A DNA stretch of 32,631 nucleotides, taken from Bacillota bacterium (GTDB taxonomy: Bacteria > Bacillota > UBA4882 > UBA10575). The stretch covers positions 1 through 32,631 of the forward strand of contig JAAYHY010000031.1 of assembly GCA_012735135.1 (NCBI GenBank), in the 5' to 3' direction. A program made the position numbers and the translations under genes. The notes beneath the pieces were generated by a model that ran no database searches, had not been told where the DNA came from, and worked only from the letters and a program-made list of their open reading frames with translations. This document shows positions 3,877-21,053 of this stretch, piece after piece (positions within the stretch are counted from its first letter, which is position 1; each line of letters begins with the position of its first letter).

Positions 3877-3890
3877 GGCATCACCTGCTT

Positions 3891-6601: not shown

Positions 6602-6630
6602 TTGACAAAAGGAGGGCGAATGTATATAAT
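6602..6630 (+). promoter_or_regulatory. Consensus sigma-A promoter of the glucan locus plus arm
   Basis: TTGACA at 6602-6607, 17-base spacer, TATAAT at 6625-6630: both hexamers are perfect. Transcription should begin near 6637, inside the operator that follows. This is the strongest promoter seen upstream of the porin gene, and its position implies tight repression by the LacI-type protein encoded at 19991-20992. Confidence 0.9.
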
Positions 6631-6632
6631 AA

Positions 6633-6648
6633 ACTTAACCGGTTAAGT
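6633..6648. promoter_or_regulatory. LacI-family operator O1 (16-bp palindrome)
   Basis: ACTTAACCGGTTAAGT is a perfect palindrome with the central CG typical of LacI/GalR-family sites. It starts 2 bases after the -10 box and covers the expected start site. The 12-bp core recurs at 7698, 19964 and 21009, each beside genes of this locus, which identifies it as the operator of the local LacI protein (inference). Confidence 0.88.
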
Positions 6649-6699
6649 ATTAAAGATAACTCGCCGGATTTTTAAAATAGCCGTAACCCTAGAGGGGTG

Positions 6700-6783
6700 A
6701 TGGTCACCGCTGAGTTCATGGGCCGGTGGAAACCAAAGATTAAAGCTTACGGTAGAAAAAGTATTAAGAAAGGTGTGGTCTGA
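6700..6783 (+). CDS. Possible 27-residue leader peptide
   Basis: A short ORF opens at ATG 6700 behind AGAGGGG and stops at TGA 6781-6783, sharing one base with the porin ATG (TGATG). The product is basic (RWKPKIKAYGRKSIKK) and has no recognised family. The porin gene also has its own site (AAAGGTG, seven bases from its ATG), so coupling is possible but not required. A short inverted repeat GGTGA-TGG-TCACC at 6696-6708 covers the leader start. It may be chance. Confidence 0.3.
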   Translation: MVTAEFMGRWKPKIKAYGRKSIKKGVV

Positions 6784-7667
6784 TGAAAAGATGTTTAGCG
6801 GTGTTAGGCTCTGTATTTCTCCTTTTTGCAGTGGCTTCCTCCAGTATCGCGGCCACTGTCATTGGGGGTGAGGTAGACTTCGGCTATGATATACAAAGGT
6901 CGATTACTTATGGTTATGCCAAACTGATCGCCGAAAACCGGATCAATGATGGTTTGACTGCCCATATTTCCTTTGATTTTGATACCATTGAGAAACAGGG
7001 CATGTGTGATCAAGCTTGGGCCGAGTTATACAACAGGTATACTACAATCCGGGTTGGCTATTGGCATTTCGATGTCAAGGGCGATGTCCGCGTGATTAGT
7101 CCGGTTACGATTATTGGACAGACGGCGACGGCGAGAGCGGAAATTCAACACAATTGTCAAGCCAGAATTGATCTTCCAATAAGTGAAAGTATCAACCTGA
7201 TGGGGTTTTTAACCCAACAACCCGCAGAAGAAGAACTACTATATGCCGGTGGCATATCTTATGAAGGGGATATTTGGGGAGCAGAGGCGATTTACATCAA
7301 ATATGACTCTTCGGTTTGGGCCGATCCGGCGGTAGTTCTTAATGCGTACTTAATTCCCTTTGATTCGACCAAAGTTTATTTGCATTACGGATTAAGCCGG
7401 GACTGTTATGGCGCTCAACCAAATGCTCCTACCAAAGAGCGAAAAGCCGCAATTATTGGCGTGAACTACGATTCCTTTGACTTACCTGTTTACATCCGGG
7501 GTGAAATTGACTTATATAAAGGTCTTTATGATGACGGAAATACCCCGTGGGGGCTGGTGGTAGGGTATAAGTTCAGAAATGGGGCCAGACTGCAGTATGA
7601 CCGGTATGTCCATGCCTACGGGGAAGACCATAATACAAATATTGTTAAGTTAATCGTCACCTTCTAA
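6783..7667 (+). CDS. Porin-like outer-membrane beta-barrel protein
   Basis: A 294-residue secreted protein. Residues 1-23 are a classical signal peptide (MKRCLAVLGSVFLLFAVASSSIAA). The rest alternates short amphipathic strands (for example GGEVDFGYDI, TTIRVGYWHFDVKG, PVYIRGEIDLYK, WGLVVGYKFRNGARLQYDRY) with polar turns and has no lipobox or membrane helix. It ends IVKLIVTF, with a C-terminal Phe as in many outer-membrane barrels recognised by BamA. I infer a 12- to 16-strand diffusion channel for oligosaccharides, placed first in the glucan operon. Three cysteines are unusual for a porin. No specific family is recognised; a secreted beta-rich surface protein is the alternative. Confidence 0.65.
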   Translation: MKRCLAVLGSVFLLFAVASSSIAATVIGGEVDFGYDIQRSITYGYAKLIAENRINDGLTAHISFDFDTIEKQGMCDQAWAELYNRYTTIRVGYWHFDVKGDVRVISPVTIIGQTATARAEIQHNCQARIDLPISESINLMGFLTQQPAEEELLYAGGISYEGDIWGAEAIYIKYDSSVWADPAVVLNAYLIPFDSTKVYLHYGLSRDCYGAQPNAPTKERKAAIIGVNYDSFDLPVYIRGEIDLYKGLYDDGNTPWGLVVGYKFRNGARLQYDRYVHAYGEDHNTNIVKLIVTF

Positions 7668-7697
7668 AGGACACAGGGGCTTTTTTTGGATGGAAAA

Positions 7698-7709
7698 TTA
7701 ACCGGTTAA
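7698..7709. promoter_or_regulatory. LacI-family operator O2
   Basis: TTAACCGGTTAA, the exact core of O1, lies 30 bases after the porin stop and about 46 bases before the next start codon. A weak promoter is possible around it (TTGGAT 7686-7691, TATATT 7711-7716, 19-base spacer). It may give the downstream genes their own regulated start, act as a roadblock, or form a loop with O1 about 1060 bases away. Confidence 0.85.
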
Positions 7710-7755
7710 GTATATTGGTTTTACTTCTCAACTATATTATTATGGGGTGACCGAA

Positions 7756-8346
7756 ATGAAGCGGGCCTTGCTAATGGGAATCCTGTTTTTATGCCTGATG
7801 CTCCTCTGCTTCCTTGGCCAAGGGGTTGCGAAGGCACAGGTGTGGCCGGCCAATGAAATATACCTTTGGCGGATGGAAGATAAAAGAGAGTTGAGATCTT
7901 TTGATTCGGACCGTTCCGGAGCCCGGTTTGTTCTTGATGATGAATATGTTACTGAAGGTAATTATTCATGCAAAGTTATCCCCGGAGGTGGAGAAGAGAC
8001 AAAGTTAGCGGTGAAGATCACCGGTTTAATTGAGAAGTGGAATGGCAAGAACAGTTTATTCCTTGATCTATATTTGCCGGAAGATCACCCGTTGAATGGC
8101 TGTTTTCTCGGGTTGGCCCAGGCTTTGCCCGAATGGGAATGGATTGATGGGTGCATGGCGGCAACCTCGGTGATCCCGGGTGAATGGAACCGCGTCATCT
8201 TCAAACTCACTGATAAGATGAAGTTTCTTCATCCACGAAAGCAATATATAATCTACCTTTGTTTTTGGCATGATGATGGCGGGGAAAAAATCCCTTTACA
8301 TAAAGAAAACCCCTTCTATATTGATGGCATTGGGTTAATCGAATAA
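7756..8346 (+). CDS. Secreted single-module glycan-binding-like protein
   Basis: A 196-residue exported protein. I choose ATG 7756 because GGGGTGA lies five bases upstream; the GTG at 7747 is part of that site. A signal peptide runs to about residue 29 (FLGQGVAKA-Q). The mature protein is one beta-sandwich-like module with landmarks shared with three other copies in this locus: YLWRMED at the start, GNYSCKVIPGGGEETKL, a WNGKNSLFLDLYLPE strand, WEWIDG, PGEWNRVIFKLT, and a closing FYIDGIGLI. The pattern resembles galactose-binding-fold carbohydrate modules, so glucan capture is inferred from fold and context. No known family is claimed. Confidence 0.72.
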   Translation: MKRALLMGILFLCLMLLCFLGQGVAKAQVWPANEIYLWRMEDKRELRSFDSDRSGARFVLDDEYVTEGNYSCKVIPGGGEETKLAVKITGLIEKWNGKNSLFLDLYLPEDHPLNGCFLGLAQALPEWEWIDGCMAATSVIPGEWNRVIFKLTDKMKFLHPRKQYIIYLCFWHDDGGEKIPLHKENPFYIDGIGLIE

Positions 8347-8370
8347 ATGCTGGAGAGAGGTGGAAAGAGG

Positions 8371-9000
8371 GTGACTAGAAAGCGGATTTGGATATGGCTC
8401 TTCCTCCCGTTAGTTTTCTTGCTGACCTCCTGTGAGCGTTCTTCGCGCAATAACGGCTCCGCCCATGTGACTTTTTTATGGAATATGGATAATGAATTGG
8501 TGTTTACCCGGGTCAATTGTGGAGTCACTAAGGTGACGGAACCGGTTTATCAATGCGCCTATTCATGGAGACTTACTCCTTCAGGATCTTCAGACCCGAA
8601 TTATCCTGAAGTGAAACTGGAGACGACCTTTGATCCGATTAATAATCCCGGCCTTTTTGAGAAATGGATTTGGGCAAACCGGGTATTCATTGATGTCTAT
8701 GTTCCGGAGGGAAGTAATTTTAATAATTGTTTTGTCTATGTATGGGATGACAAAGCTTATTTTGAAACCGGAAATGGCTGGGTTGACGGCGTGTTTCAAC
8801 AAAAGGTGATGGGTCCTGGCTGGAACCGGGTGGTTCTTCCCCTCACTTTTAAGATTAAGGATTTGGATCCCTCACGGCCCAGAACTTATAAAATCGGTTT
8901 TGGCTTTCGCCACATGGCCGAAGGCCAAGAAAAGTATAGAGAAAACGGCTATCCTTTAAATCAAGTTCCAATTTATATCGGTGGGATTGGCGTGTTTTAG
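8371..9000 (+). CDS. Lipoprotein with one glycan-binding-like module
   Basis: A 209-residue lipoprotein. I prefer GTG 8371, which has GAGGTGG upstream; ATG 8347, directly after the previous stop, would add eight residues before the signal sequence. The lipobox is FLLTSC, giving an anchored mature protein. One module follows with the same landmarks as the neighbours: FLWNMDN, YSWRLTPSG, a WANRVFIDVYVPEGSNFNN strand, GWVDG, GPGWNRVVLPLT, DLDPSRPRTYKIGFGFRH and IYIGGIGVF. It has diverged most of the four copies. It is nearly fused to the preceding gene, so the two are probably co-translated as a pair of surface glycan-binding proteins. Confidence 0.72.
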   Translation: MTRKRIWIWLFLPLVFLLTSCERSSRNNGSAHVTFLWNMDNELVFTRVNCGVTKVTEPVYQCAYSWRLTPSGSSDPNYPEVKLETTFDPINNPGLFEKWIWANRVFIDVYVPEGSNFNNCFVYVWDDKAYFETGNGWVDGVFQQKVMGPGWNRVVLPLTFKIKDLDPSRPRTYKIGFGFRHMAEGQEKYRENGYPLNQVPIYIGGIGVF

Positions 9001-9010
9001 CCGCCCGTGT

Positions 9011-9102
9011 CGGTTACCTCCCGTGCGCATGAAGGGTTGAAGATGAACTGATTGACAACATTCCTCGGTGGATGGCCGGTTACCTTTTAGGCGCATAAAG
9101 GG
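9011..9102 (+). repeat. Imperfect 26-bp direct repeat
   Basis: Two 26-base units at 9011-9036 and 9077-9102 both begin CGGTTACC and contain GCGCAT and AAGGG; 20 of 26 positions agree. Their starts are 66 bases apart, about six helical turns. They occupy the gap between the module lipoprotein and the first glucanase gene. TTGACA at 9052-9057 lies between them but has no matching -10. Confidence 0.4.
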
Positions 9103-9160
9103 ACATATGCATGGGCGATGAGTAACCAGTGTGATACCTCAAACAGAGGGGGATTGGATT

Positions 9161-11215
9161 ATGCGGAAAAAGACGAGGTTCTTGTTGTTTGTATTTTTGC
9201 TCTTCTTTGGTTTGCTCTGTGTTATGGCGCAAGCGCAGGACAGGATTGAGGTGGAGACCGGCCGGCCTGAGTTTATCGAAAAAATGCTCGAGAAGACTTC
9301 AGAAGAGAGTAGAGAAGAAGTGGCTTCCCTTCTGAAGCTGGATGACGATGAACTTTTGGAGGCGATCTCCCGCCGGACTTTTCAGTATTTTTGGCAAGAG
9401 GCCAATCCACGGAACGGGTTGATTAAGGATCGTAGCACTGTAGACTCGCCCAGTAGCATTGCCGCGGTGGGTTTCGGGTTAAGCGCAATTCCCGTGGCGG
9501 TTGAGCGGGGCTGGATTTCTTATGACGAAGGTTATCAACGGGCCTTGACCACCCTAAAGACTTTTGCCAAGGGTAAAGTGGAAGGGCGGAAGGGGTTTTA
9601 TTATCATTTTGTCGACATGCATTATGGAAAAAGGGTTTGGAACTGCGAACTGTCCTCGATTGACACAGCAATCCTGATTGCCGGAGGGATCGTCTGCGGT
9701 GAATACTTCAAAGGAACCAGCGTCGAAAAGTATGCCAATCAACTCTATGAAAAGGCGGATTGGCAATGGATGACCAATGGTGAGGAGACATTAACCATGG
9801 GGTGGGACCCCCTCCATGGTTTTCTTCGGGCCCGTTGGAACGGTTTTAACGAGGGGATTCTCGCCACTTTACTGGCGATCGGTTGACCCACCCATCCGCT
9901 CTCTCCGGAAGCATGGCACAAGATCTACCGGCCGGTGAAAGGCGGAACGTATATCAATTTACAAGACGAAGTCCTCTTTGTTTATCAATATCCCTTGATC
10001 TGGTTTGACCTCCGGGAAAAGGAAGACCGGTATGCCAATTATTGGCAGAACGCGATCGCCGCCATTAATTATAACCGGCTTTTTACTAGGTTTAACCGTA
10101 GTTACCTGACTTACCGGGGTAATATCTGGGGGCTAAGCGCCGGGGACGGCCCCACCGGCTATAAGGCCTATGGCGCTTTTCACGATAAACATGACGGCAC
10201 GATTGTGCCGTATGCCTCCATTGCTTCGTTGCCTTTTACGCCGGCGGAATCGATGGCGGCAATCCGGGAGATGCTGGCGAAATTTGGTCCATTGGTCTGG
10301 GGGAAATACGGTTTTGTCAGTGGCTTTAATGTAGACCGTAAATGGTTCTCCAAGCAACATATCGGCATCGACCAGGGCGCCATTTTACTGATGATTGAAA
10401 ATTACCGGACCGGTATGATCTGGGAGTATTTCATGCGCCACCCCAGGGTGCAAAAGGCTCTGGAACTTGCGGGTTTCAAAGAAAGTAACTCCGAATACGC
10501 GGTCACTCCCGCCTATGCGGAAGAGTATGAGGCCCTCATGCTCCTCCCCTCCCAGAAAACAGCTGAAGCCTTCCGCAGGCAAAAGGCGGTTTTGATCGAT
10601 GGGGATCTCACGGAATGGCAGGGTGTGCCCAGCTATTTGGTGGATGAAGACATGAATGTCCCCGATGGAAATATTACAAAAGTTGATAAAAACAAGATGA
10701 ATCTCCGCAGTGAGTTTTATCTTCAATGGGACGACGAGTACCTCTATTTAGCCGCCGATGTGACGGATGATGTAATCGTCAACAACCTCTCTCCAGCGGA
10801 ACGGGGCGCCTTTTACCGTACCGATTCGGTGGAGTTTTATATCGATCCCGGCCGGAGCGGAGGCGGGGCCGGTCTTTTCAAATTAAGTGTCCTTCCCTTT
10901 GATACTTTAGGCAACGTCCATGCGGCGCGGCACGAGGACGCCCGTCCCGGGCCGATCGAGGTCATGGCGCCGGGGACACGGGTGGCTTCCCGGCGGACTG
11001 TTAAAGGCTATAGTGTGGAAGTGGCCATTCCCTTTACGGAATTGGGGATTAGTCCCCAGGAAGGGCTGGTTCTGGGGTTCTGCCATACGGTGCATAATTG
11101 TAACGACCGGTCGGCTCCGCGCGGCGCTTATGTCCGGGAGAACATGATCGCCTGGAACCATCTGCCTATGGTGTGGGAAAATCCGGATTTGTGGGGAGAC
11201 TTGATTCTCAAGTAG
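9161..11215 (+). pseudogene. Secreted GH144-like glucanase with CBM9, split by in-frame TGA
   Basis: Start ATG 9161 follows AGAGGGGGA. A signal peptide ends near AQAQ. A PF10091 (GH144-like, endo-beta-1,2-glucanase) domain runs from LLEAISRRTFQYFWQEANP to FMRHPRVQKALELAGF, with WGLSAGDGPTGYKAYG and FNVDRKWF...IGIDQGAILLMIENYRTG matching the family. A CBM9-like domain follows (KAVLIDGDLTEWQG, DEYLYLAADVTDD, RTDSVEFYIDP, GYSVEVAIPFTELG). TGA at 9884-9886 interrupts the frame inside G-[stop]-PTHP, where the paralogue at 12798 reads GSPTHP (TCA). Everything after it stays open in the same frame to 11215, so there is no other decay. Possible causes are a recent nonsense mutation, a base error, or readthrough; a GTG at 9935 could only restart a fragment. 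Confidence 0.85.
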
Positions 11216-11413
11216 TTACAGTAAAAACAATCATTCACATGAACGAAGAGGATCGAGCGACGGAGTAAAGGGCAAAAGGAAAAGCCTGTTCTTTGACGGG
11301 TGTTGCAATTCTAACCTTAAGGGGGTGAGCTGGTAAAGGAAACGGTAAGGGGATAAAGACAAGGGTATTCATGGGGATGGATCTCCAAAGTAAAAAAAAA
11401 CGAGGTGAATGTG

Positions 11414-12589
11414 GTGAAAAGAACGATTTATCTCGCTTTGGTTTTGTGCCTGGTGGTAGCGCTGATGGCTGGTTGTGGCAAGAAGAAAGAAAAAACTGGT
11501 CCAACCGGTCCGGTAATCCCACAGGTTGGAACGGTCCTCTGGAATTTTGAAACCGATGAGGAAGTAGCAAAGTTTGATAATGACAATACGGGAGCAGAGC
11601 TTGAACTTGATACCAAGACTGTTGCGGAAGGAAAAGCCGCTCTAAAAGTGACGCCCAATGGCGAGGCGGAGGAAACCAAGATCGCCGCCGTTCTAGATCA
11701 GGCTAAAGTTGGCGCTTGGAATGCCAGCAAAAACCTTGTGCTTAAACTCTATATGGACCAGGGTATGAATCCGGCCATCAACATTGTCTTTCTTGGAATC
11801 GCCGATGTAACTGGTGGTAATTGGAGCTGGGTGGATGGCACTTTCTTGAACATTGCCGGAGCGAAAACTGGTCAATGGAATACATGTGTCTTTGATCTGA
11901 CCGCAAAGCCTACGATGCTGGACTTGGATCCAAAACGCGACTACAAATTCTATTTTAGTTTCTATAATGAGGATGGAGAAAAAACACCGCTGGCCAGCAG
12001 TAGCAGTTTTTATGTGGACTATATTTATATTGATGGCCAAGGTTCCAGCGAAGATCCGGGCGAAGATCCCGGTGAAGATCCGGAACCGGCCCTCCTCTGG
12101 GGTTTCGAGTCGGAAAATGAAGCAACTGAGTTTGCGGAGGAGGGAGGAACCGGTGCGGTTCCTACCTATACCACGGAACAAGCCTTTGCGGGGACCGGCG
12201 CGCTGAAAGTAACTCCAAGCGGCACGGCAGAAGAAACAAAGATCAAAGTGCGGTTACCGGTAACCAAAAATGAAAACTGGAAGAACAGCTCAAACCTTGT
12301 CCTTAACCTCTATATGGCAGAAGGAATGGCTCCGGCCGTCAATAAGATTTTTGTGGGGATGGCGGATGTGACTAATGATGGCTGGGAATGGGTAGAGGGC
12401 ACGACCTCTTCCTTAACCGAGGTAAAGCTGGGAGAATGGAACGAATGTAAGCTTCTCTTGCCCCATAAAATGATAAATATAGATCCAACGAAACAATATG
12501 AGTTATACTTCAGCTTCTTCAATGAGGTAGACGGGGCAAAAACACCGCTTGCGGATGCCTTTTATATCGATGAAATCTCAGTGGAGTAA
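11414..12589 (+). CDS. Lipoprotein with two tandem glycan-binding-like modules
   Basis: A 391-residue lipoprotein. GTG 11414 is chosen because GAGGTG lies six bases upstream and it gives a clean signal peptide (MKRTIYLALVLCLVVALMAGC, cut before Cys21). A Lys-rich linker leads to module 1 (VLWNFETDEEVAKF ... FYVDYIYIDG) and, after an acidic EDPGEDPGEDPEP linker, module 2 (LLWGFESENEATEF ... FYIDEISVE). The modules share ALKVTPxGxAEETKI, NLVLxLYM, GxADVT, WxWV(D/E)GT, GxWNxC, and DPxxxYxxYFSFxNE. They match the single modules at 7756 and 8371. A glucan-holding role like SusE/SusF is inferred. The gene ends at a strong terminator. Confidence 0.78.
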   Translation: MKRTIYLALVLCLVVALMAGCGKKKEKTGPTGPVIPQVGTVLWNFETDEEVAKFDNDNTGAELELDTKTVAEGKAALKVTPNGEAEETKIAAVLDQAKVGAWNASKNLVLKLYMDQGMNPAINIVFLGIADVTGGNWSWVDGTFLNIAGAKTGQWNTCVFDLTAKPTMLDLDPKRDYKFYFSFYNEDGEKTPLASSSSFYVDYIYIDGQGSSEDPGEDPGEDPEPALLWGFESENEATEFAEEGGTGAVPTYTTEQAFAGTGALKVTPSGTAEETKIKVRLPVTKNENWKNSSNLVLNLYMAEGMAPAVNKIFVGMADVTNDGWEWVEGTTSSLTEVKLGEWNECKLLLPHKMINIDPTKQYELYFSFFNEVDGAKTPLADAFYIDEISVE

Positions 12590-12632
12590 GCAAGCCTCCT
12601 TTTAGCCAAAAGGATCGACAATTAACTACCGA

Positions 12633-12665
12633 GTGTGGCAGCCAGCTGCCACACTTCTCTCTTTT
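12633..12665 (+). terminator. Rho-independent terminator of the plus-arm operon
   Basis: A ten-base perfect stem GTGTGGCAGC / GCTGCCACAC with a tiny loop is followed by TTCTCTCTTTTT. It lies 44 bases after the two-module lipoprotein stop and splits the second glucanase gene from the upstream operon. Confidence 0.85.
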
Positions 12666-12694
12666 TATTCACTATGGTTTTCTGCGTAAAGCTT

Positions 12695-12723
12695 TTTGCG
12701 TTGTCTGCTATAACGGCTAATAT
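12695..12723 (+). promoter_or_regulatory. Probable promoter of the second glucanase
   Basis: TTTGCG at 12695-12700, 17-base spacer, TAATAT at 12718-12723. It lies between the terminator and the glucanase start and carries no copy of the TTAACCGGTTAA operator, so this gene may be expressed without LacI control as a scouting enzyme (inference). Confidence 0.45.
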
Positions 12724-12797
12724 AACAAGATAAATTGGTAGATTTCCGGATTGAGAAGGCAACACAGAAAGCCAGGATTATATTGGGGGAGGAACAA

Positions 12798-14072
12798 ATG
12801 AAAAGGTATTTATCGAAAATACTCAATGTCTTTCTTATTATCTTACTCCTTGTCGTACTGGTTGGTTGCGGAAAGAAAACGCCTCCCCAGGCGCCGGATC
12901 TTTTGACGGATGTTTCGAGGCGGACTTTTAATTATTTTTGGGAATTTGCCCACCCGGAAACCGGTTTGGTGCTGGACAAATACATCGACCAATCGGTAGC
13001 CAGTATTGCGGCGACCGGGTTTGGCCTGGCGGCGTTACCAATCGGGGTGGAAAAGGGTTGGATCACCCGGGTCCAAGGAAAGGAACGGGCCCTTAAGACA
13101 TTAGACTCCTTCGAATCCGGACTGGTGGAGGGGAAAAACGGTTTTTTTATGCATTGGGTAAATTGGAGAACCGGAAAAGGGGTGTGGGACCGGGAGGTTT
13201 CATCCATTGATACCGCTTTGTTCATCGCGGGCGCAATTGTTGCCGGCGAGTATTTTGGCGGTGATATTAAAGAACGGGCTGAGAAATTATACAAAGCAAT
13301 CGATTGGCAATGGATGACCGACGATGGCGTCACTTTAAGAATGGGCTGGAAAGAAAAAGAGGGTTTCACCAACGACCGGTGGGGAGACCGGTTTGACGAG
13401 GGGTTATTGGCCACCCTTCTGGCCATGGGTTCACCGACACACCCAATCTCTCCGGCGGCTTGGGACGCGATTGACCGTTCAGTGGTGCAGACCAACCCAC
13501 ACACCGGTGAGACCCATATCGCGTTGGAAGCTGAGACTCTCTTTGTCTACCAGTTCCCCTTAATCTTTTTTGATCTCCGGAATACGGCCGACCGTCATGG
13601 AATTGATTATTTTGAAAATGCCGTAAAGGCAACGAAGTATAACCGGGATTATACGATGAAGACCCACGCTGACAAGTATGGCGTCTACGGGGAGGTCTGG
13701 GGTTTAAGCGCCGAGGATAAACCCTATGGCGGTTATCATGCCTATGGCGCCCGGGATGGTAACAACGACGGCACTATTGCGCCGTATGCTTCGATCTCGG
13801 CTTTGCCTTTTCTCCCGGAAGAGGCGATGGCGGCAGTTAAGGCGATGGTCAACAACTTCCCGCAAGTCTACGGAAAGTATGGTTTTCATGCCGGATTTAA
13901 TCTCATTGTTAAGGGGGGGCCATGGTATTCCGGTAATTACATCGGGATTGACCAAGGCGCCATTTTGCTCTCGATTGCCAACTACCAATCGGAAATGGTG
14001 TGGAAATACTTTATGCAAAACCCTTATGTCCTAGAAGCGGTAAGGCTGGCCGGCTTTGACCGGTATCAATAG
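12798..14072 (+). CDS. GH144-like endo-beta-1,2-glucanase lipoprotein
   Basis: A 424-residue surface-anchored enzyme. Start ATG 12798 has GGGGGAGG just upstream; the frame is open further 5' but without a better site. The lipobox is VLVGC, followed by a Pro-rich linker. A single PF10091 domain fills the rest: DVSRRTFNYFWEFAHPETGL, GLAALPIGVEKGW, DREVSSIDTALFIAGA, WGDRFDEGLLATLLAMGSPTHPISPAAW, YGEVWGLSAEDKPYGGYHAYGARDGNNDGTIAPYAS, YGKYGFHAGFN and YIGIDQGAILLSIANYQ. The known GH144 activity is endo-cleavage of linear beta-1,2-glucan to sophoro-oligosaccharides; the related domain of cyclic glucan synthase is a transferase, so activity is inferred. It is intact, unlike the CBM9-bearing paralogue, and lacks that CBM. 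Confidence 0.85.
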   Translation: MKRYLSKILNVFLIILLLVVLVGCGKKTPPQAPDLLTDVSRRTFNYFWEFAHPETGLVLDKYIDQSVASIAATGFGLAALPIGVEKGWITRVQGKERALKTLDSFESGLVEGKNGFFMHWVNWRTGKGVWDREVSSIDTALFIAGAIVAGEYFGGDIKERAEKLYKAIDWQWMTDDGVTLRMGWKEKEGFTNDRWGDRFDEGLLATLLAMGSPTHPISPAAWDAIDRSVVQTNPHTGETHIALEAETLFVYQFPLIFFDLRNTADRHGIDYFENAVKATKYNRDYTMKTHADKYGVYGEVWGLSAEDKPYGGYHAYGARDGNNDGTIAPYASISALPFLPEEAMAAVKAMVNNFPQVYGKYGFHAGFNLIVKGGPWYSGNYIGIDQGAILLSIANYQSEMVWKYFMQNPYVLEAVRLAGFDRYQ

Positions 14073-14166
14073 GAAGGCTATGCCATCGTATACAGTGTAA
14101 AAGATAAATGCGTTAGCGGTGTGAAGAGTAAGAGGATAATCAATAAACATAAAAACAACTTAAGAA

Positions 14167-14200
14167 AAAACAGCGGTTTCCCCTTTGGGACCGCTGTTTT
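14167..14200. terminator. Bidirectional terminator between convergent arms
   Basis: The stem AAAACAGCGGT / ACCGCTGTTTT, with a further CCC/GGG pairing in the loop, has an A-run on one side and a T-run on the other. It can end the glucanase transcript rightwards and the permease operon leftwards. Confidence 0.85.
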
Positions 14201-14247
14201 GCGTTTCACTCTCTTTTGGTTGGTTGTTGTTTTGTTTTCTATGGCTT

Positions 14248-14393
14248 CTAACTCTCTTGGGTGGCTGGATTTTTGCCAAGTAGGACCACCAACTGCTCCT
14301 GGCCTCCCGTGAGGGTTAATGTATAATCGTGGTTCTGGCCCGGTGCTTGACCGGCGACGGATGGCCATCAAAAGGAAAAGGAATTTTGCCCAA
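14248..14393 (-). pseudogene. Degraded C-terminal coding remnant
   Basis: Directly after the permease stop the minus strand still reads like protein: first LGKIPFPFDGHPSP in the permease frame, then, after a frame change, VAGQAPGQNHDYTLTLTGGQ followed by EQLVVLLGKNPATQES and a TAG at 14248-14250. The second piece has a beta-strand pattern and is followed by the shared terminator, as a real gene end would be. I read it as the tail of a lost sixth gene of the operon. The family is not recognised and chance cannot be excluded. Confidence 0.35.
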
Positions 14394-15269
14394 TCAGCTT
14401 TTTATCCCCGTTGTTGAAATCCCGTGGACGATGAATTTTTGTCCGGCTAAGAAGATCAAGAAGAGTGGGATTAAAACCAGAACCGCTCCGGCCATCACGA
14501 CGCCAAAAGTTGTGCTGGCCTGGTTTTGCCCGAAAAGGGTGTAAAGAGCGACTTGTAAAGTATACATACTGCTGTCGGTGGCGATAATTGCCGGCCAGAG
14601 AAAGTCGCGCCACATCCCGGTGAAGTTGAGGATACCAAGGGTGGCTAAAGCAGGTTTAAGTAAAGGGATGATGATCCTAAAGAAGATGAGCCCTTCGTTG
14701 GCTCCGTCAATCCGGGCGACCTCACATAGTTCATCGGGGATGCTCAGCATATGTTGGCGGAGGAAAAAGATATTAAAGACATTGGCCAGCGGCGGGATGA
14801 TGAGCGCGCGATAGGTATTGAGCCAACCTAAAAAGTTGATGGAAAGATAGTTCGGGATTAACGTTACCTGTGAAGGAATCATCATCGTGGCGAGAAAAAG
14901 CATAAATAAAAGGTTCCGACCGGGAAAATGTAATTTCGAAAAAGCGTAGGCCGCCATCGCTGGGATGAGAAGCGCGCCAATGGTGTAAGAAACGGTGACG
15001 ATTAAGGTGTTTTGAAAGGCTTTGGCAAAATCGATCTCTTGTTTGAAGAGGTTAATGTAGTTCTCGAAGGAGATGTGTTTTGGGATTAAGCGCGGCGGTA
15101 GCTCGAAGATGGCCTCTTGGCTCTTGAAAGAAGTTGATATCATCCAAAACAAGGGAAGTATTGTTGAGAGGAGGCCAATGATTAAAAGCAGATAGACACC
15201 GATCTTAAGCAGAAGGGCTTTCGGCGGCACCCTTTTTCTACGGTTATAGTTAAGAGGCTCCTTTTCCAT
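14394..15269 (-). CDS. Sugar ABC transporter permease, MalG type
   Basis: A 291-residue inner-membrane permease of the carbohydrate-uptake-1 class. Six hydrophobic segments are visible, beginning with LLLKIGVYLLLIIGLLSTIL. The cytoplasmic EAA loop is clear: EVARIDGANEGLIFFRIIIP, which contacts the ATPase. I start at ATG 15269 because GGGAGGG lies six bases upstream; the TTG at 15284 is inside that site. It follows the MalF-type gene by 18 bases and is the last intact gene of the minus arm. With its partner it should import oligosaccharides handed over by the binding protein. No ATPase gene is in the operon, so a shared MsmX-type ATPase elsewhere is likely. Confidence 0.92.
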   Translation of the reverse strand: MEKEPLNYNRRKRVPPKALLLKIGVYLLLIIGLLSTILPLFWMISTSFKSQEAIFELPPRLIPKHISFENYINLFKQEIDFAKAFQNTLIVTVSYTIGALLIPAMAAYAFSKLHFPGRNLLFMLFLATMMIPSQVTLIPNYLSINFLGWLNTYRALIIPPLANVFNIFFLRQHMLSIPDELCEVARIDGANEGLIFFRIIIPLLKPALATLGILNFTGMWRDFLWPAIIATDSSMYTLQVALYTLFGQNQASTTFGVVMAGAVLVLIPLFLIFLAGQKFIVHGISTTGIKS

Positions 15270-15287
15270 AATCAACCCTCCCAAAAG

Positions 15288-16166
15288 TTAGTATTTTTGC
15301 TCACCGAGTTTAATCTGAAACAGGGTGACAATGAAGATAAAGGCGAAGAGGATATATGAAGAGGCTGCCGCGTAACCCATTTTGAAGTAACGGAAACCAT
15401 TCTCGTAGATGAACAACACAATTGTTTTCGTCGCATCCATTGGTCCTCCCCCATTGGTGAGGGTTAATGGTTCAGTAAACAATTGAAAACCACCGATCAT
15501 CGAAGTTATGCTAATGAATAAGGTGGTTGGCGCCAGGAGAGGAATGGTGACATACCAAATTTTCTGCCATCTGTTCGCGCCGTCAATCTCCGCGGCTTCG
15601 TACAGTTGTTGGGGGATATTTTGGAGTCCGGCCAGGTACAGCATGGCATAATAGCCCAGACTCCGCCAGACCACCAGCCCGACAATGGCTAGCATGGCGA
15701 ATCTTACGTCCGTGAGCCAGCCGGGGCCTTTGATCCCAAACCAGCTTAAAATATGGTTTAGAATCCCGTAGTCTTTGCTGACCACCCAATACCAGACCGT
15801 CGAGATGGCGATTCCGTCACTGATATAGGGCATAAAAAAGCCCATCCGGAAAAAATTACGCAGTTTGATCAGGGGTAAATTTAAAAGTAAAGCCAGCGCC
15901 AAGGAGAGGACCAGCACCAGGGGTACCATCAAAACGACAAAATATAAGGTATTCACAATACATTTTAAAAAAAGTTCATCATGGAGCAGATGCCGGTAGT
16001 TTGCCAAACCGATTAATTTGGCGTTTCCCCAGTTGACTAAGGAACGGACATTAAAATCGGTTAAGCTAATATATAAGGAAAAGAAAACCGGGAAAACGAC
16101 AAAGCAGAAAATAATGATCAGCGAAGGTAACAGAAACAAGAGCGGAGTTAGGTATTTTTTTCTCAC
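15288..16166 (-). CDS. Sugar ABC transporter permease, MalF type
   Basis: A 292-residue inner-membrane permease, partner of the MalG-type protein. It opens with a basic start and a hydrophobic helix (LTPLLFLLPSLIIIFCFVVFPVFFSLYISL), has about six helices, and carries the EAA loop YEAAEIDGANRWQKIWYVTIP. GTG 16166 is preceded by AAAGGGGGAA. Unlike E. coli MalF it lacks the extra N-terminal helices and large periplasmic loop, as is normal for Gram-positive-type oligosaccharide importers. A strong hairpin lies in the 105-base gap between it and the upstream binding-protein gene. Confidence 0.92.
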   Translation of the reverse strand: MRKKYLTPLLFLLPSLIIIFCFVVFPVFFSLYISLTDFNVRSLVNWGNAKLIGLANYRHLLHDELFLKCIVNTLYFVVLMVPLVLVLSLALALLLNLPLIKLRNFFRMGFFMPYISDGIAISTVWYWVVSKDYGILNHILSWFGIKGPGWLTDVRFAMLAIVGLVVWRSLGYYAMLYLAGLQNIPQQLYEAAEIDGANRWQKIWYVTIPLLAPTTLFISITSMIGGFQLFTEPLTLTNGGGPMDATKTIVLFIYENGFRYFKMGYAAASSYILFAFIFIVTLFQIKLGEQKY

Positions 16167-16203
16167 CTGTGTTCCCCCTTTAAAAAAACTGGACAGGAGA
16201 CGG

Positions 16204-16237
16204 ATTGCTGGGCGAAGCAGGTTCTTCGCCCAGCAAT
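16204..16237. promoter_or_regulatory. Intra-operon 14-bp perfect hairpin
   Basis: ATTGCTGGGCGAAG pairs perfectly with CTTCGCCCAGCAAT across a six-base loop. It sits between the binding-protein gene and the first permease gene. On the transcribed (minus) strand no T-run follows directly (a run of seven T comes about 15 bases later), so partial termination or 3'-end protection is more likely than full stop. Such hairpins raise binding-protein mRNA over permease mRNA, as at malE-malF. Confidence 0.7.
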
Positions 16238-16271
16238 ATAGGCTAGGATCTTGGTGAATTTGGAGTGGCCT

Positions 16272-17492
16272 TTAGTAATCAGCCATGATCTTTTCCAAGT
16301 CTTTCGCCAGTAATTGACAGGCTTCCAGTGGTGTTCTAACCCCATAACAAGCCTCTTGGATTCTGGTATTAAGGCGGCCTTCGATCTCCGGCCATTGCGG
16401 CACGACCGGCGGCGCCACCCCTTCCTTGAGTTGTTCAAAAACGATCTTCATGAGCGGGTCTTGCTCGGCGGCCATGGCCATGGCTTCTATATTGGCGGGA
16501 ATGGAGCCGGCTGCTTCTCGCCACTGGTTTTGGATCTCCGGCCGACTCAGAAATTCAATTAGTTTCCAGGCGGCCTCTTTCTGACGGGCTCTTTTGAAGA
16601 TGACTAGACCACAGCCGCCCATGAAAGAGGCGCGGCTTTTCTTCATCGGCATCAAGGCAATCGACCATTTACCATCCAAATGCGGGGTTTCGGTACGTAA
16701 AAGGTTCCCTTCCCAAAAGCCGCCGATGAAAATGGGCAACCTTCCATTGGCTAATTCTTGCCTTATGTTCGAGCCTCCAGTATCAAGTAGGGCATATTCA
16801 TTTTTAAAGATATCGACCAGCCAGGCTACGGCCTCTACAAAGGCTTCTTCGGTTACGGCAGGACGGCCTTCTTCATCAAAGATCCGGCCGCCGTTGGCCC
16901 AGATAAAATTCATGGTGACCTGCCAGTTACCGGCAGCCATGTTTACCGCATGTTGATTGGGTCCTCTTGCCCGCAGCTTCCGGCAACAGTCAATAAACTC
17001 ATCCCATGTATCCGGAAACTCTTTATAACCAACTTCCTCCAGAATATCGGTGCGGTAAAAGAAAAATCTCGTATCGGCATACCAAGGGATACCATAGGGT
17101 TTACCGTCTACAATGTAAAGGTCGCGGCAAGCCGGAAAGAAGTCATCCAATTTTAAGCTATTTGATTTTGCCAAATAGGGAGAGAGGTCTTCCAGCGCTC
17201 CTGCTGTTGTAAATTGGGCCATATAAGTTGAACCCATCTGGGTAAGGTCGGGGACGGTGCCGCCAGCCACTGCGGTTAAAAGCCGGTCGTTCGCGGCTGA
17301 CCACGGAATTACTTGGAGCTTAACTTTGATCCCTGGATTTTCCGCTTCAAATTGGGGCAACAGTTTACCAATATTCTGGCCTTCGACCCCCATCGCCCAT
17401 AGGGAGATAGTTTGTACGTTGGCTGCTTTTAAAGGGAAGACTGCTGTCATGATGAGGATCAGAACAAAAAACAACCGTACCGATCTTCTCAT
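16272..17492 (-). CDS. Periplasmic sugar-binding protein of ABC importer
   Basis: A 406-residue family-1 extracellular solute-binding protein. Residues 1-24 are a signal peptide (RLFFVLILIMTAVFPLKAA) with an Ala-X-Ala-like cleavage site and no lipobox cysteine, so the mature protein should be soluble. Bacillota with one membrane normally lipidate these proteins, so this points to a periplasm. The body fits the fold: ISLWAMGVEG, LLPQFEAENPGIKVKLQVIPW, DLTQMGSTYMAQF, GKPYGIPWYADTRFFFYRTDIL and GGCGLVIFKRARQKEAAWKLIEFL. It starts 78 bases after the GH94 gene. By context the ligand is a beta-1,2-gluco-oligosaccharide, similar in logic to the Listeria sophoro-oligosaccharide importer; unproven. 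Confidence 0.9.
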   Translation of the reverse strand: MRRSVRLFFVLILIMTAVFPLKAANVQTISLWAMGVEGQNIGKLLPQFEAENPGIKVKLQVIPWSAANDRLLTAVAGGTVPDLTQMGSTYMAQFTTAGALEDLSPYLAKSNSLKLDDFFPACRDLYIVDGKPYGIPWYADTRFFFYRTDILEEVGYKEFPDTWDEFIDCCRKLRARGPNQHAVNMAAGNWQVTMNFIWANGGRIFDEEGRPAVTEEAFVEAVAWLVDIFKNEYALLDTGGSNIRQELANGRLPIFIGGFWEGNLLRTETPHLDGKWSIALMPMKKSRASFMGGCGLVIFKRARQKEAAWKLIEFLSRPEIQNQWREAAGSIPANIEAMAMAAEQDPLMKIVFEQLKEGVAPPVVPQWPEIEGRLNTRIQEACYGVRTPLEACQLLAKDLEKIMADY

Positions 17493-17570
17493 TATTTACC
17501 CCTCCATTATGTTTTTATAAGGCGCATTCGGATTTGAATCCGGGTTAAGCCAAAGAAATACCAAGGATAT

Positions 17571-19940
17571 TTAGAAAATCACGTCCACGTAATGAAGCCG
17601 GCCGTCAAAATTGGGGAAAATCTTATTACTGTTAAGTTTCACCCCGTCCAGAATCAACCCCTTTTCTTCGCCGGTGGCGGCCCGCCGGAAAGCAAACTGG
17701 TAGACGGCGCCCCGGTAGGGCCGGGTGACCCTGAACTCTGTCCATTCGTCAGGAACCTGCGGGTTGATTAAGAGGCCGTCCCAATCGGGGATAATTCCGC
17801 AGATCCCTTCCATGGCGACCAGAAACGACCAAGTGGAAGAGCCCGTGTACCAGGTGAACCCCCCACGTCCGAAATGGGGGGAATCGGGTCCGTCGACATT
17901 ACCGGGGGTCACATAGGGTTCCGCTTTATATAAATCAGGATTAAGGCCCCGGTAAGGCGGTAAAATGTTTTTATAGGCCGCATAGGCCTGCTTTTTCTTC
18001 CCTAATTTGCAGGCGGCGAGTATCCCCCAGGTGGCGGCATGGGTGTAAACACCGCCGTTTTCCCGTAATCCCGGTGCGTACCTGCTTAAATAACCGATGT
18101 TTGTCTGAGATGTCTTGTAGGCGGGGTAAAAAAGGATCGGCCCATACTCACGGAAGAGATACGTCTCCATGGCGTGGAAGAGCTTCTCCGCCCGGTCAGG
18201 AGGGGCTATATCATTAAGGATGGCCCAGGATTGGGGGTTAAGAAAGATTTTCCCTTCCGGGGAATTTTTACTCCCGAGGATGACGCCGTTATCACAAACG
18301 GCGCGAATATACCAATCGCCATCCCAGCCATATGTATTGATTAGTGTCTTCAGACGTTCCGCGGCACGTAGATACTGCTCTTTGCGTTCAGGGTCATTAC
18401 TCTTCTCCGCCACAACCGTAAATTCTTTTAGGATTCCGCATAAGAATTGGGCCAACCAGATGCTTTCCCCTTTTCCTTCCGCGCCCACCGCATTCATGCC
18501 GTCGTTCCAATCCCCGTCGCCAATGAGGGGAAGCCCCCGCGGACTTAGATGCGCCAGGCTGTAGTCGATGGCTTGGCAACAGTGTTCATAGATACTGGCC
18601 GGCGTCCCGTCTTTGTAAGGGACTTGTTCTTGCAGAAAGCCATAATTACCAGTCTCTTTTAAATACCTGATCACCACAAAGGGCAACCAAAGCAGATTAT
18701 CGGAGATCTTGTTCTCCATGGCGATTTCTGAAAGCGGATGCCACCAGTGGTTCACCCTTCCCTCTGGAAATTGATGGGCGGCATGCAATTTGATCTGTTG
18801 TTCGGTTCTGGCCGGGTCGATGTATAAAAAGATCTGGCTGGCCTGAAGCTGGTCCCGGAAGCCATAGGCGCCACCCGCTTGGTAATAGCCGGTTCTTCCC
18901 CAGATATGGCCGGAGAGGGTCTGGTACTTTAACCAAAGATTATTCATCAAGTTAAATCCCGGATCGGGAGTTTGAACCGTGGTGGTTGTTAAGAGCTGTC
19001 GCCAATATTCTTTCGTGGCGGCGAACCCTTCCTCCACCGCCGAGGCGGATTGATATTTCTTGATCAGCTCGTCGGCCTGTTTCTCGTCTTCTTGCCCTAC
19101 GGCGCCCAGCAGATAGATAAGCTCCACTTTTTGACCGGGCGGGATCACGACCTTGTTATGAAGGCTGCTGATGGGATCAGTCCATTTGCCGGACGTGCCG
19201 CTAACAGCACCCTTAATTACGGCGGCCGGTTTTTCGCTGCTTCCGTATAAACCCAAGAACTTTTCTTTATCGCCTTCAAAGCCGGTGACCGGGAGGTTGA
19301 CACTGTGAAAAGCAAGGTATTCCCAATCCCTGTTCCAATGCTGCCCTTTGGCATTCGGGATCTCCCATAAGCGTTTTCGCGCGAAGATGGTATTGCGGTC
19401 CTCATCAAATTGGGTCTCTACAAAGAGACGATGAAACTCACGGGCGTGGTCGGGAAGGCCTAAACACCATTCAAGGTAGGTGAAGAGGGATAGATGTTTC
19501 TCCTGCCTACTCTGATTTTGCAGTTGGACTCTCCAGATTTCGAGGGGCTCTCCGGGAGGGACAAAGATCGTAAGGGTGCTTTCGATCTGTTGATAAACTG
19601 AGTTAAATTGAGAATAACCAATCCCATGTTTTACTTGGTAAAAATCGGGTTGGTAGCAGACCGGTTTCCACGTGAGCGACCAGAATTGACCGGTGTCTTC
19701 GTCGCGAAGATATAAGTATTTACCGGAATTATCTTTGATCAGGTCCTGTTCCCATCGGGTAATCCGGTTGTGGGAAGCGTGGGTCTTCCAACTGTAGCCG
19801 CCACCTGTTTGCGAAAGGATGACCCCATAATCACCCGGGCAGATGATATTCACCCATGGGCGGGGGGTATCCGGTCTGGTAATAATATACTCGTCACCAG
19901 CATCATTAAAATATCCATATTTACTTTGAAACTGGGCCAA
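17571..19940 (-). CDS. GH94 beta-glucan oligosaccharide phosphorylase
   Basis: A cytoplasmic protein of about 789 residues, the usual length of cellobiose/chitobiose-type GH94 enzymes, which split beta-glucosides with phosphate to give glucose 1-phosphate. The N-terminal FQSKYGYFNDAGDEYIITRPDTPRPW is family-typical, and the catalytic Asp lies in GLPLIGDGDWNDGMNAVG. GAYGFRDQLQAS, HWWHPLS and ISDNLLWLPFVV resemble, from memory, the GH94 domain of cyclic beta-1,2-glucan synthase and sophoro-oligosaccharide phosphorylases more than cellobiose phosphorylase, but it lacks the extra length of the ~1100-residue 1,2-beta-oligoglucan phosphorylase. I choose TTG 19940 because GAGGTG lies six bases upstream; GTG 19949 is inside that site. 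The TTAACCGGTTAA operator sits upstream. Linkage specificity is inferred from neighbouring GH144-like genes. Confidence 0.9.
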   Translation of the reverse strand: MAQFQSKYGYFNDAGDEYIITRPDTPRPWVNIICPGDYGVILSQTGGGYSWKTHASHNRITRWEQDLIKDNSGKYLYLRDEDTGQFWSLTWKPVCYQPDFYQVKHGIGYSQFNSVYQQIESTLTIFVPPGEPLEIWRVQLQNQSRQEKHLSLFTYLEWCLGLPDHAREFHRLFVETQFDEDRNTIFARKRLWEIPNAKGQHWNRDWEYLAFHSVNLPVTGFEGDKEKFLGLYGSSEKPAAVIKGAVSGTSGKWTDPISSLHNKVVIPPGQKVELIYLLGAVGQEDEKQADELIKKYQSASAVEEGFAATKEYWRQLLTTTTVQTPDPGFNLMNNLWLKYQTLSGHIWGRTGYYQAGGAYGFRDQLQASQIFLYIDPARTEQQIKLHAAHQFPEGRVNHWWHPLSEIAMENKISDNLLWLPFVVIRYLKETGNYGFLQEQVPYKDGTPASIYEHCCQAIDYSLAHLSPRGLPLIGDGDWNDGMNAVGAEGKGESIWLAQFLCGILKEFTVVAEKSNDPERKEQYLRAAERLKTLINTYGWDGDWYIRAVCDNGVILGSKNSPEGKIFLNPQSWAILNDIAPPDRAEKLFHAMETYLFREYGPILFYPAYKTSQTNIGYLSRYAPGLRENGGVYTHAATWGILAACKLGKKKQAYAAYKNILPPYRGLNPDLYKAEPYVTPGNVDGPDSPHFGRGGFTWYTGSSTWSFLVAMEGICGIIPDWDGLLINPQVPDEWTEFRVTRPYRGAVYQFAFRRAATGEEKGLILDGVKLNSNKIFPNFDGRLHYVDVIF

Positions 19941-19963
19941 TCCTCGCACCTCTTTCTATAAAA

Positions 19964-19975
19964 TTAACCGGTTAA
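19964..19975. promoter_or_regulatory. LacI-family operator O3
   Basis: TTAACCGGTTAA lies 16 bases after the lacI stop and 24 bases before the GH94 start. No strong promoter is seen with it (TATAGA lies just downstream on the minus strand, without a good -35). It may control a weak local promoter or stop read-through from lacI. Confidence 0.85.
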
Positions 19976-19990
19976 GTTCGCGGTAAAAAA

Positions 19991-20992
19991 TTAAATGGCC
20001 TGACAAGAGGAACGCTCAACCAAACTGGTTTTTAAAACAACTTTCCGTTGGGAAGGTTTTTCATTGTAGATAAGCTGAAAAATCATTTCGGTGGCACGTT
20101 TTCCCATTTCTTCGATGGGTTGCTTGATCGTGGTTAGCGCCGGTTCAACGAGTGAAGAAGCCTCGATATCATCGCAGCCAATGATCGAAAGTTCTTGCGG
20201 CACCTTAAGACCTGCTGCGCGTGCTGCTGAGAGAACACCGATGGCCATTTGGTCATTGGCCGCGAAAACCGCAGTAGGATTTGGTTGGATCTGTTGTAAG
20301 GTGAAAAATGCTTGATAACCCCCTTCACGTTTAAAGTTTCCCTGGCAAAACAGGTCTTCCGTATATGAGAGCCCATAATCATTAAGGGCTTGACGGTAAC
20401 CGCGAAAGCGGAGTAAACTATCGTTTGAGCTTTGCGGCCCGCCAACAAAGGCAATCCGTTTATGACCAAGTTTGATCAGATACTCGGTAGCCTTGTAACC
20501 GGCTTCAAAGTTATCCACATTTACCGAATAGATGGATTTGTCATCGAAGGTGGAGTCGATCAGGACAAAGGGAATCTTCCGTTTTTTGAGGTTAATAATA
20601 TAATCCAAATCTAAAAAATAAGTCATCAGAATGATACCATCCACCCGGCCATTGGTAAACAGGTCCACCATTTCCTGTTCTTTCTCGGGAATGGCATGGG
20701 TCGTACAGAGGTTGAGGGTAAAATTGTACAAATTAGCGGTTTTCTCCACTCCCCGGACGACTTGGACGTAAAAATGGTCACTAATATCCGGGATTATTAA
20801 CCCTAACATTTCGGTGGATTTTCCGGCTAAGCCACGGGCAACCGCATTGGGATGGTAATTCATCTCCTTCATAATTTTAAGGATTTTCTGCCGCGTTTCT
20901 TCGCTGACTCCCGGTTTATTATTGATAACATAAGAGACAGTTGCCTTTGTCACATTGGCGGCTTTGGCAATATCACTAATGGTTACTGGCAA
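19991..20992 (-). CDS. LacI-family transcriptional regulator of the glucan locus
   Basis: A 333-residue repressor. The N-terminal helix-turn-helix is textbook: VTISDIAKAANVTKATVSYVINN, then the hinge region YHPNAVARGLAGKST. The ligand domain resembles periplasmic sugar-binding proteins (LGLIIPDISDHFYVQVVRGVEKTA, GHKRIAFVGGPQSSNDSLLRFRGYRQAL, PTAVFAANDQMAIGVL, LSIIGCDDIEASSLVEPALTTIKQP). TTG start at 20992 has GAGGGTGA four bases upstream. Its own promoter carries the same operator as the structural genes, so it should repress itself. The inducer is probably a gluco-oligosaccharide from the pathway (inference). Confidence 0.93.
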   Translation of the reverse strand: MPVTISDIAKAANVTKATVSYVINNKPGVSEETRQKILKIMKEMNYHPNAVARGLAGKSTEMLGLIIPDISDHFYVQVVRGVEKTANLYNFTLNLCTTHAIPEKEQEMVDLFTNGRVDGIILMTYFLDLDYIINLKKRKIPFVLIDSTFDDKSIYSVNVDNFEAGYKATEYLIKLGHKRIAFVGGPQSSNDSLLRFRGYRQALNDYGLSYTEDLFCQGNFKREGGYQAFFTLQQIQPNPTAVFAANDQMAIGVLSAARAAGLKVPQELSIIGCDDIEASSLVEPALTTIKQPIEEMGKRATEMIFQLIYNEKPSQRKVVLKTSLVERSSCQAI

Positions 20993-21008
20993 ATAATCAC
21001 CCTCTAAC

Positions 21009-21020
21009 TTAACCGGTTAA
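21009..21020. promoter_or_regulatory. LacI-family operator O4 (autoregulation)
   Basis: TTAACCGGTTAA sits four bases downstream of the -10 box of the lacI promoter on the minus strand, over the predicted start site. This is the same geometry as O1 at the porin promoter. Confidence 0.88.
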
Positions 21021-21024
21021 TTTA

Positions 21025-21053
21025 ATTATATACACTAGTAAAGACTTTGTCAA
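21025..21053 (-). promoter_or_regulatory. Consensus promoter of lacI
   Basis: On the minus strand, TTGACA at 21053-21048, 17-base spacer, TATAAT at 21030-21025. Both hexamers are perfect, matching the porin promoter exactly in hexamers and spacing. Transcripts should start near 21018, inside operator O4. Confidence 0.9.

What the first reader, a model, noticed from the sequence alone, without database searches (positions are those of the whole stretch)
6602..21053. A LacI-controlled beta-1,2-glucan utilisation locus built like a SusCDEF system with different parts
One regulon, defined by four identical operator cores, joins a porin-like barrel, three proteins with four copies of an unassigned module, two GH144-like glucanases (PF10091), a GH94 phosphorylase, a periplasmic binding protein, two permeases and a LacI repressor. 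GH144 enzymes cut beta-1,2-glucan and GH94 enzymes phosphorolyse gluco-oligosaccharides (established). Joining them with an outer-membrane pore and lipid-anchored capture proteins in a Bacillota-like genome suggests a polysaccharide utilisation system that is not Bacteroidetes-type Sus (inference).
Basis: partly seen in the sequence, partly recalled or inferred. Interest (0 to 1): 0.82.

Follow-up and report, generated by a model that had tools for sequence, protein, structure and literature searches.

The report
Regulated beta-1,2-glucan uptake and degradation locus
A two-membraned relative of the Gram-positive bacteria carries one repressor-controlled gene set that very probably captures, imports and breaks down the rare sugar polymer beta-1,2-glucan; the enzymes are of known kinds, but the outer-membrane pore and the sugar-binding module that go with them appear to be undescribed.

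Summary
The locus is real and well read. The operator core TTAACCGGTTAA occurs four times in the 2.56-Mb genome, all here; two copies lie 4 nt after perfect sigma-70 promoters (TTGACA-17-TATAAT) that open the two converging arms. Same-genus, same-family and more distant Bacillota relatives keep this promoter-operator layout. The substrate call, beta-1,2-glucan, is strongly supported. Both PF10091 proteins are GH144 and keep the SGL-clan residues. The binding protein's best solved match is Listeria Lin1841, which binds sophoro-oligosaccharides. [quoted passage not shown] Orthologous loci add a GH35 related to a beta-1,2-glucosyltransferase; the window keeps only a deletion scar of it. The 'unassigned module' is a confidently modelled CBM-like beta-sandwich, no Pfam family, fused to GH144 in five other genomes. 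The host group is LPS-diderm. The SusCDEF analogy is functional only: no SusC or SusD, and the best relative has no TonB receptor. The barrel is an orphan family (three genomes), supported only by sequence pattern. In this genome GH144a carries an in-frame TGA and GH35 is deleted, so this copy may be partly decayed or carry an assembly error. Verdict: a new variant of known beta-1,2-glucan clusters (Listeria, Ignavibacterium) with new uptake parts.

The parts
6602..6630 (+). sigma-70 promoter TTGACA-N17-TATAAT of the + arm
   Evidence: 12/12 consensus; same promoter and 4-nt spacing to the operator in G006 and G012
6634..6647 (.). operator 1 CTTAACCGGTTAAG, core 4 nt after the -10
6783..7667 (+). 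orphan outer-membrane-type beta-barrel, 294 aa, signal peptide, C-terminal Phe
   Evidence: no Pfam (above cut-off), NCBIfam or PDB match; alternation z 5.1; found only in G000, G006, G012; dN/dS 0.06; AF2 model failed
7697..7710 (.). operator 2, between barrel and first module gene; no strong promoter of its own
   Evidence: same place in G006 and G012
7747..8346 (+). secreted single-module CBM-like protein (module 1)
   Evidence: AF2 pLDDT 91.8; Foldseek to CBM folds
8347..9000 (+). single-module CBM-like lipoprotein (module 2), lipobox LTSC
9131..11215 (+). GH144 endo-beta-1,2-glucanase with C-terminal CBM9-like domain (GH144a); reading frame broken by TGA at 9884-9886
   Evidence: PF10091 6.6e-62; CBM9_1 5e-20; stop is Ser in G006 and G012; dN/dS 0.054 after the stop
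11405..12589 (+). two-module CBM-like lipoprotein (modules 3 and 4), lipobox MAGC
12735..14072 (+). GH144 endo-beta-1,2-glucanase, lipoprotein (lipobox LVGC; GH144b)
   Evidence: PF10091 2.9e-58; XcSGL 8xul 3.5e-66 with SGL-clan residues kept
14281..14358 (-). scar of a deleted GH35 gene (26 C-terminal codons)
   Evidence: 58% identity to G006 GH35 C-terminus; gap region 75% identical over 238 bp to G006, E 4e-39; 0 of 500 shuffles as good; no GH35 relative left in the genome
14394..15284 (-). ABC sugar permease G-type
   Evidence: 80-92% identical in G012 and G006
15288..16166 (-). ABC sugar permease F-type
   Evidence: 86-95% identical in G012 and G006
16272..17492 (-). periplasmic sophoro-oligosaccharide-binding protein (Lin1841-like), no lipobox
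   Evidence: PDB 5ysb Lin1841, E 5e-82, ahead of 3uor at 3e-64
17571..19949 (-). GH94 phosphorylase of the cyclic-glucan-synthase type
   Evidence: 554 bits to NdvB/CGS versus 439 to cellobiose phosphorylase; groups with CGS C-terminus 100/100
19963..19976 (.). operator 3, 14 bp before GH94
19991..20992 (-). LacI-family repressor, probably autoregulated
   Evidence: PF00356 and PF13377; 90% identical in G006, 66% in G174
21008..21021 (.). operator 4, core 4 nt after the -10 of the lacI promoter
21025..21053 (-). sigma-70 promoter TTGACA-N17-TATAAT of the - arm
   Evidence: 12/12 consensus

Best explanation
This is a LacI-repressed beta-1,2-glucan catabolic regulon of an LPS-diderm Bacillota. 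Shown by sequence: one operator shared by two converging arms; two GH144 genes; a GH94 of the cyclic-glucan-synthase type; a Lin1841-like binding protein with two permeases; CBM-like modules linked to GH144; a small barrel tied to the locus. Inferred: extracellular linear or cyclic beta-1,2-glucan is held by the secreted and lipid-anchored modules and cut by GH144; fragments pass the outer membrane through the dedicated small barrel, without TonB. The periplasmic binding protein hands sophoro-oligosaccharides to the permeases, powered by a MalK-type ATPase encoded elsewhere. In the cytoplasm GH94 phosphorolyses them to glucose-1-phosphate. A sophoro-oligosaccharide or its product releases LacI from operators that sit just behind the two promoters. 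In relatives a GH35 beta-1,2-glucosyltransferase acts on the sophorose left over; here that gene is lost. The confidence given is for substrate and regulon; the outer-membrane uptake route alone deserves about 0.5.
For: Operators only here genome-wide; in G006 all 4 and in G174 both exact sites lie in the locus; -10-to-operator distance of 4 nt and 12/12 promoters in four genomes. GH144: XcSGL 3.5e-66 and CpSGL matches. Lin1841 5e-82. GH94 with CGS domain. GH35 in the same operon position of relatives matches IaSGT 7vkw at 4e-173. Same parts list in Ignavibacterium album (PMC8861115) and in part in Listeria (PMC3960220). Module fold and fusions. Omp85, LpxC, LpxA, TamB. Purifying selection on all genes compared.
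Against: No enzyme here was assayed. GH144a has a stop codon and GH35 is deleted, so this copy may be impaired. The barrel has no structure model and no homologue of known function. Surface location of the lipoproteins and binding by the modules are untested. No ATPase or sophorose-cleaving enzyme is in the locus.
Confidence: 0.86

Rival explanations
1. A true Sus-like system: the barrel and module proteins are divergent SusC/SusD/SusE relatives powered by TonB.
For: Functional resemblance: pore, lipoproteins and secreted endo-enzyme in one regulon.
Against: Barrel is 294 aa with no plug or TonB-receptor match; modules fold as CBM beta-sandwiches, not SusD-type helices; G006, with all the gene types of the locus, has no TonB receptor.
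Confidence: 0.03
2. The cluster degrades another beta-glucan (cello-, laminari- or mixed-linkage oligosaccharides).
For: GH94 and CBM-like folds occur for other glucans; no assay was made here.
Against: GH144, Lin1841-type binding protein, CGS-type GH94 and IaSGT-type GH35 point to the same linkage independently.
Confidence: 0.05
3. The locus recycles the cell's own cyclic beta-1,2-glucan rather than feeding on glucan from outside.
For: Nine genomes of the same genus, family or order have CGS-type proteins of about 2500-2870 aa or a fragment of one; one was matched over nearly its full length to solved CGS, 1892 bits.
Against: G000 and G006 carry the locus but no CGS; in the genus the two do not occur together (2 locus genomes, 5 CGS genomes, 1 neither). 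G012 has both.
Confidence: 0.05
4. In this particular genome the locus is decaying and no longer works, although it is functional in relatives (compatible with the best explanation for the family).
For: In-frame TGA in GH144a, deleted GH35, the extra module protein of G006/G012 absent.
Against: dN/dS 0.05-0.20 for all genes compared, 0.054 even after the stop; GH144b intact; promoters and operators intact. The TGA may be a draft-assembly error.
Confidence: 0.15

Closest known systems
Ignavibacterium album SGL gene cluster (IALB_1177-1187; PMC8861115)
   Same: Two GH144, a GH94 like the CGS C-terminal domain, a Lin1841-like binding protein with ABC transporter, a GH35 beta-1,2-glucosyltransferase (present in G006 and G012, a more distant GH35 in G174; scar in the window)
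   Different: That paper invokes a TonB-dependent transporter; here an orphan small barrel and CBM-like proteins stand in its place, under LacI control with four operators
Listeria innocua lin1838-lin1843 (PMC3960220, PMC12369401)
   Same: LacI regulator, GH94 1,2-beta-oligoglucan phosphorylase, binding protein Lin1841 with ABC permeases; no CGS in the genome
   Different: No outer-membrane pore; no GH144 reported in the cluster; has a GH3 beta-glucosidase
Bacteroidota Sus-type polysaccharide utilisation loci
   Same: Functional plan: capture, surface or periplasmic endo-hydrolysis, outer-membrane passage, co-regulation
   Different: No SusC, SusD or TonB dependence; periplasmic binding protein and ABC importer instead; LacI repressor
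CBM27/CBM22/CBM11-type beta-sandwich modules
   Same: Predicted fold of the module (Foldseek E 6e-7 to 1e-4, TM 0.5-0.6)
   Different: No sequence match above cut-off for window modules in Pfam or convincing match in PDB; found so far only in GH144-type loci of Bacillota

Membership tests
GH144 endo-beta-1,2-glucanase | PF10091 catalytic domain with best match to GH144 rather than GH189 or the other SGL-clan families | tested here: met
   GH144b: XcSGL 227 bits, CpSGL 151, GH189 TiCGS 38, H744_1c0222 (8xuk) 42; GH144a orthologue: the seven best solved matches include XcSGL and CpSGL, no GH189
GH144 endo-beta-1,2-glucanase | SGL-clan residues E239, F286, Y367 of XcSGL (PMC12102758) | tested here: met
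   Aligned to Glu, Phe, Tyr in GH144b and the GH144a orthologue; the E239Q mutant was crystallised, so the Q in chain 8xul fixes the numbering
GH144 endo-beta-1,2-glucanase | Hydrolysis of beta-1,2-glucan | not testable with these tools
   needs an assay
GH94 1,2-beta-oligoglucan phosphorylase (CGS type) | Closest to CGS C-terminal GH94, apart from cellobiose-type GH94 | tested here: met
   554 vs 439 bits; tree support 100/100
Lin1841-type sophoro-oligosaccharide-binding protein | Best match among solved binding proteins, colinear | tested here: met
   5ysb E 4.8e-82 over residues 25-372
Bacteroidota Sus system | SusC TonB-dependent receptor | tested here: not met
   none in the locus; no TonB receptor match in G006
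Bacteroidota Sus system | SusD-like lipoprotein | tested here: not met
   module is a beta-sandwich with no SusD match
Outer-membrane porin | Amphipathic strands, signal peptide, C-terminal aromatic | tested here: met
   alternation z 5.1 against shuffles, C-terminal Phe
Outer-membrane porin | Barrel fold | tested here: inconclusive
   AF2 pLDDT 31 from two sequences
Carbohydrate-binding module | Beta-sandwich CBM fold attached to a carbohydrate-active enzyme | tested here: met
Carbohydrate-binding module | Demonstrated carbohydrate binding | not testable with these tools
   needs a binding assay
LacI regulon | LacI protein with matching palindromic operators conserved across genomes | tested here: met
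Diderm (LPS) Bacillota | Omp85/BamA, LpxC, LpxA, TamB | tested here: met
   Omp85 in G000 itself; LpxC and LpxA in G012, TamB in G003

The most novel reading that the evidence does not exclude
The locus defines a TonB-independent outer-membrane uptake system for beta-1,2-glucan, with a dedicated new porin family and a carbohydrate-binding-module family specific for beta-1,2-glucan, and it separates consumers from producers of cyclic beta-1,2-glucan inside one bacterial genus.
Probability: 0.35. Interest if true: 0.68.

Novelty: new variant of a known kind. Interest (0 to 1): 0.5.

Why it matters
Beta-1,2-glucans are mostly known as signals and osmoprotectants of Proteobacteria, and how they cross an outer membrane as food is not established: the Ignavibacterium authors could only suggest a TonB receptor. 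Here a compact regulon offers a named pore candidate, a module family to test for beta-1,2-glucan binding, and a defined operator. [quoted passage not shown]

Tried and rejected
(1) TGA as a sense codon: rejected; only GH144a has an internal TGA in a conserved gene of the locus, and the neighbouring genes are open. (2) PF10091 as the GH189 transferase of CGS: rejected by scores. (3) Barrel structure: AF2 with two sequences failed; no homologue in PDB, and among 348 genomes of the phylum only G000 and G006. (4) Further operator sites: five exact cores outside the locus in G012 and G003; most lie inside unrelated genes and I treat them as chance. (5) A module-barrel fusion in G246 (927 aa) would tie module to pore, but the barrel part lacks its signal and first strand and the contig is a 6.6-kb draft piece; possible misassembly, not used as evidence. 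(6) The 589-aa porin-like protein next to modules in G292 shows no BLAST match to the window barrel and no operator was found in front of it. (8) Two papers (on CpSGL and Lin1841) were not held.

Full report
What is in the sequence. The window is a contig of a 2.56-Mb draft genome. Between 6602 and 21053 lie two converging arms. The + arm holds a 294-aa barrel-like protein, two single-module proteins, a GH144 with a C-terminal CBM9-like domain, a two-module lipoprotein and a second GH144. The - arm, read from 21053, holds lacI, GH94, a binding protein and two permeases.

The regulon. The exact core TTAACCGGTTAA occurs at 6635, 7698, 19964 and 21009 and nowhere else in the genome. Each arm opens with a perfect TTGACA-17-TATAAT promoter, and in both the operator core begins 4 nt after the -10. 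The same promoter and the same 4-nt spacing recur in G006 (same genus, both arms), in G012 (same family, the arm present) and, with an 18-nt spacer, in G174 (another family). In G006 all four exact sites of the genome and in G174 both lie in this locus. G292 has two near-identical sites in front of its module gene. That the LacI protein encoded here binds these sites is an inference from this co-conservation.

The substrate. Four independent parts point to beta-1,2-glucan. (a) Both PF10091 proteins match the GH144 endo-beta-1,2-glucanases XcSGL and CpSGL; for GH144b the match is far better than to GH189 or to H744_1c0222. Both keep the three residues that mark the SGL clan (PMC12102758). (b) The binding protein's best solved match is Lin1841 of Listeria, which binds sophoro-oligosaccharides (PMC12369401). 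[quoted passage not shown] (d) In G006 and G012 a GH35 gene sits between GH144b and the permease gene; the G006 protein matches the beta-1,2-glucosyltransferase IaSGT at 4e-173. Ignavibacterium album has a similar parts list (PMC8861115).

The module. Alignment of the four copies and their relatives gave an AF2 model with mean pLDDT 91.8. Its Foldseek matches in the PDB are dominated by carbohydrate-binding beta-sandwiches (CBM27, 22, 11, 30). No Pfam family passes its cut-off for the window proteins and no PDB sequence is convincing. In 348 genomes of the phylum it occurs strongly in eight, besides G012. In five of these it is fused in front of GH144, in most with CBM9 behind (G174, G274, G284, G292 by Pfam; G336 by tblastn and module profile). 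It is absent from the 44 GH144 loci of other groups that were fetched. It is therefore best read as a binding module that belongs to beta-1,2-glucan degradation; binding itself is untested.

The pore and the envelope. The group is diderm: Omp85 is present in all five genomes tested, including this one, LpxC and LpxA lie on a G012 contig, TamB on a G003 contig. The binding protein has no lipobox, as fits a periplasm. The barrel shows strand-like alternation (z 5.1) and ends in Phe; it is 80-93% identical in G012 and G006, and no other genome of 348 has it. G006 has no TonB receptor match and this genome has one, on another contig, so uptake by TonB is unlikely. Whether the lipoproteins face outward cannot be told.

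Decay in this copy. GH144a carries TGA at 9884 where G006 and G012 have serine (TCG, TCT), yet codons after the stop show no relaxed constraint (dN/dS 0.054): a very recent nonsense change or an assembly error. The GH35 gene is gone from the whole genome, leaving a 26-codon scar at 14281-14358 inside a stretch 75% identical to G006 over 238 bp.

Producers and consumers. Genomes of the same genus, family and order encode CGS-type proteins of about 2500-2870 aa or parts of one; one was matched over nearly its full length to solved CGS. In the genus, five genomes have CGS, two (this one and G006) have the locus, one has neither; G012 of the same family has both. The numbers are small.

Verdict. 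The enzymes, transporter type and LacI control are known kinds, and related clusters are published. New, as far as these tools show, are the diderm Bacillota setting, the orphan barrel, the undescribed module family and the defined operator. The Sus comparison holds for function, not for membership.

Noticed in passing
9884-9886: In-frame TGA in GH144a where both relatives have serine; constraint continues downstream, so a recent nonsense change or an assembly error.
   Followed up: partly
14281-14358: Scar of a deleted GH35 beta-1,2-glucosyltransferase-type gene that is intact in G006 and G012.
   Followed up: yes
[quoted passage not shown] locus-bearing genomes of the genus lack it.
   Followed up: partly
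L116:1071-3854: In G246 two modules are fused in frame to a large barrel related to a 589-aa porin-like protein of G292; either a natural module-pore fusion or a misassembly.
   Followed up: partly
L070:6675-8285: G006 has an extra three-module protein (536 aa) between the binding protein and GH94 that the window lacks.
   Followed up: partly
1970-6365: HlyD-type fusion protein, ABC ATPase and 824-aa FtsX-like permease form an export operon next to the locus, conserved in G006.
   Followed up: no
G000:C131 (L135:2125-4548 and 13742-16162): Two further GH94 genes, the first between a sugar-binding protein and a LacI gene; a separate phosphorylase system of unknown sugar.
   Followed up: no
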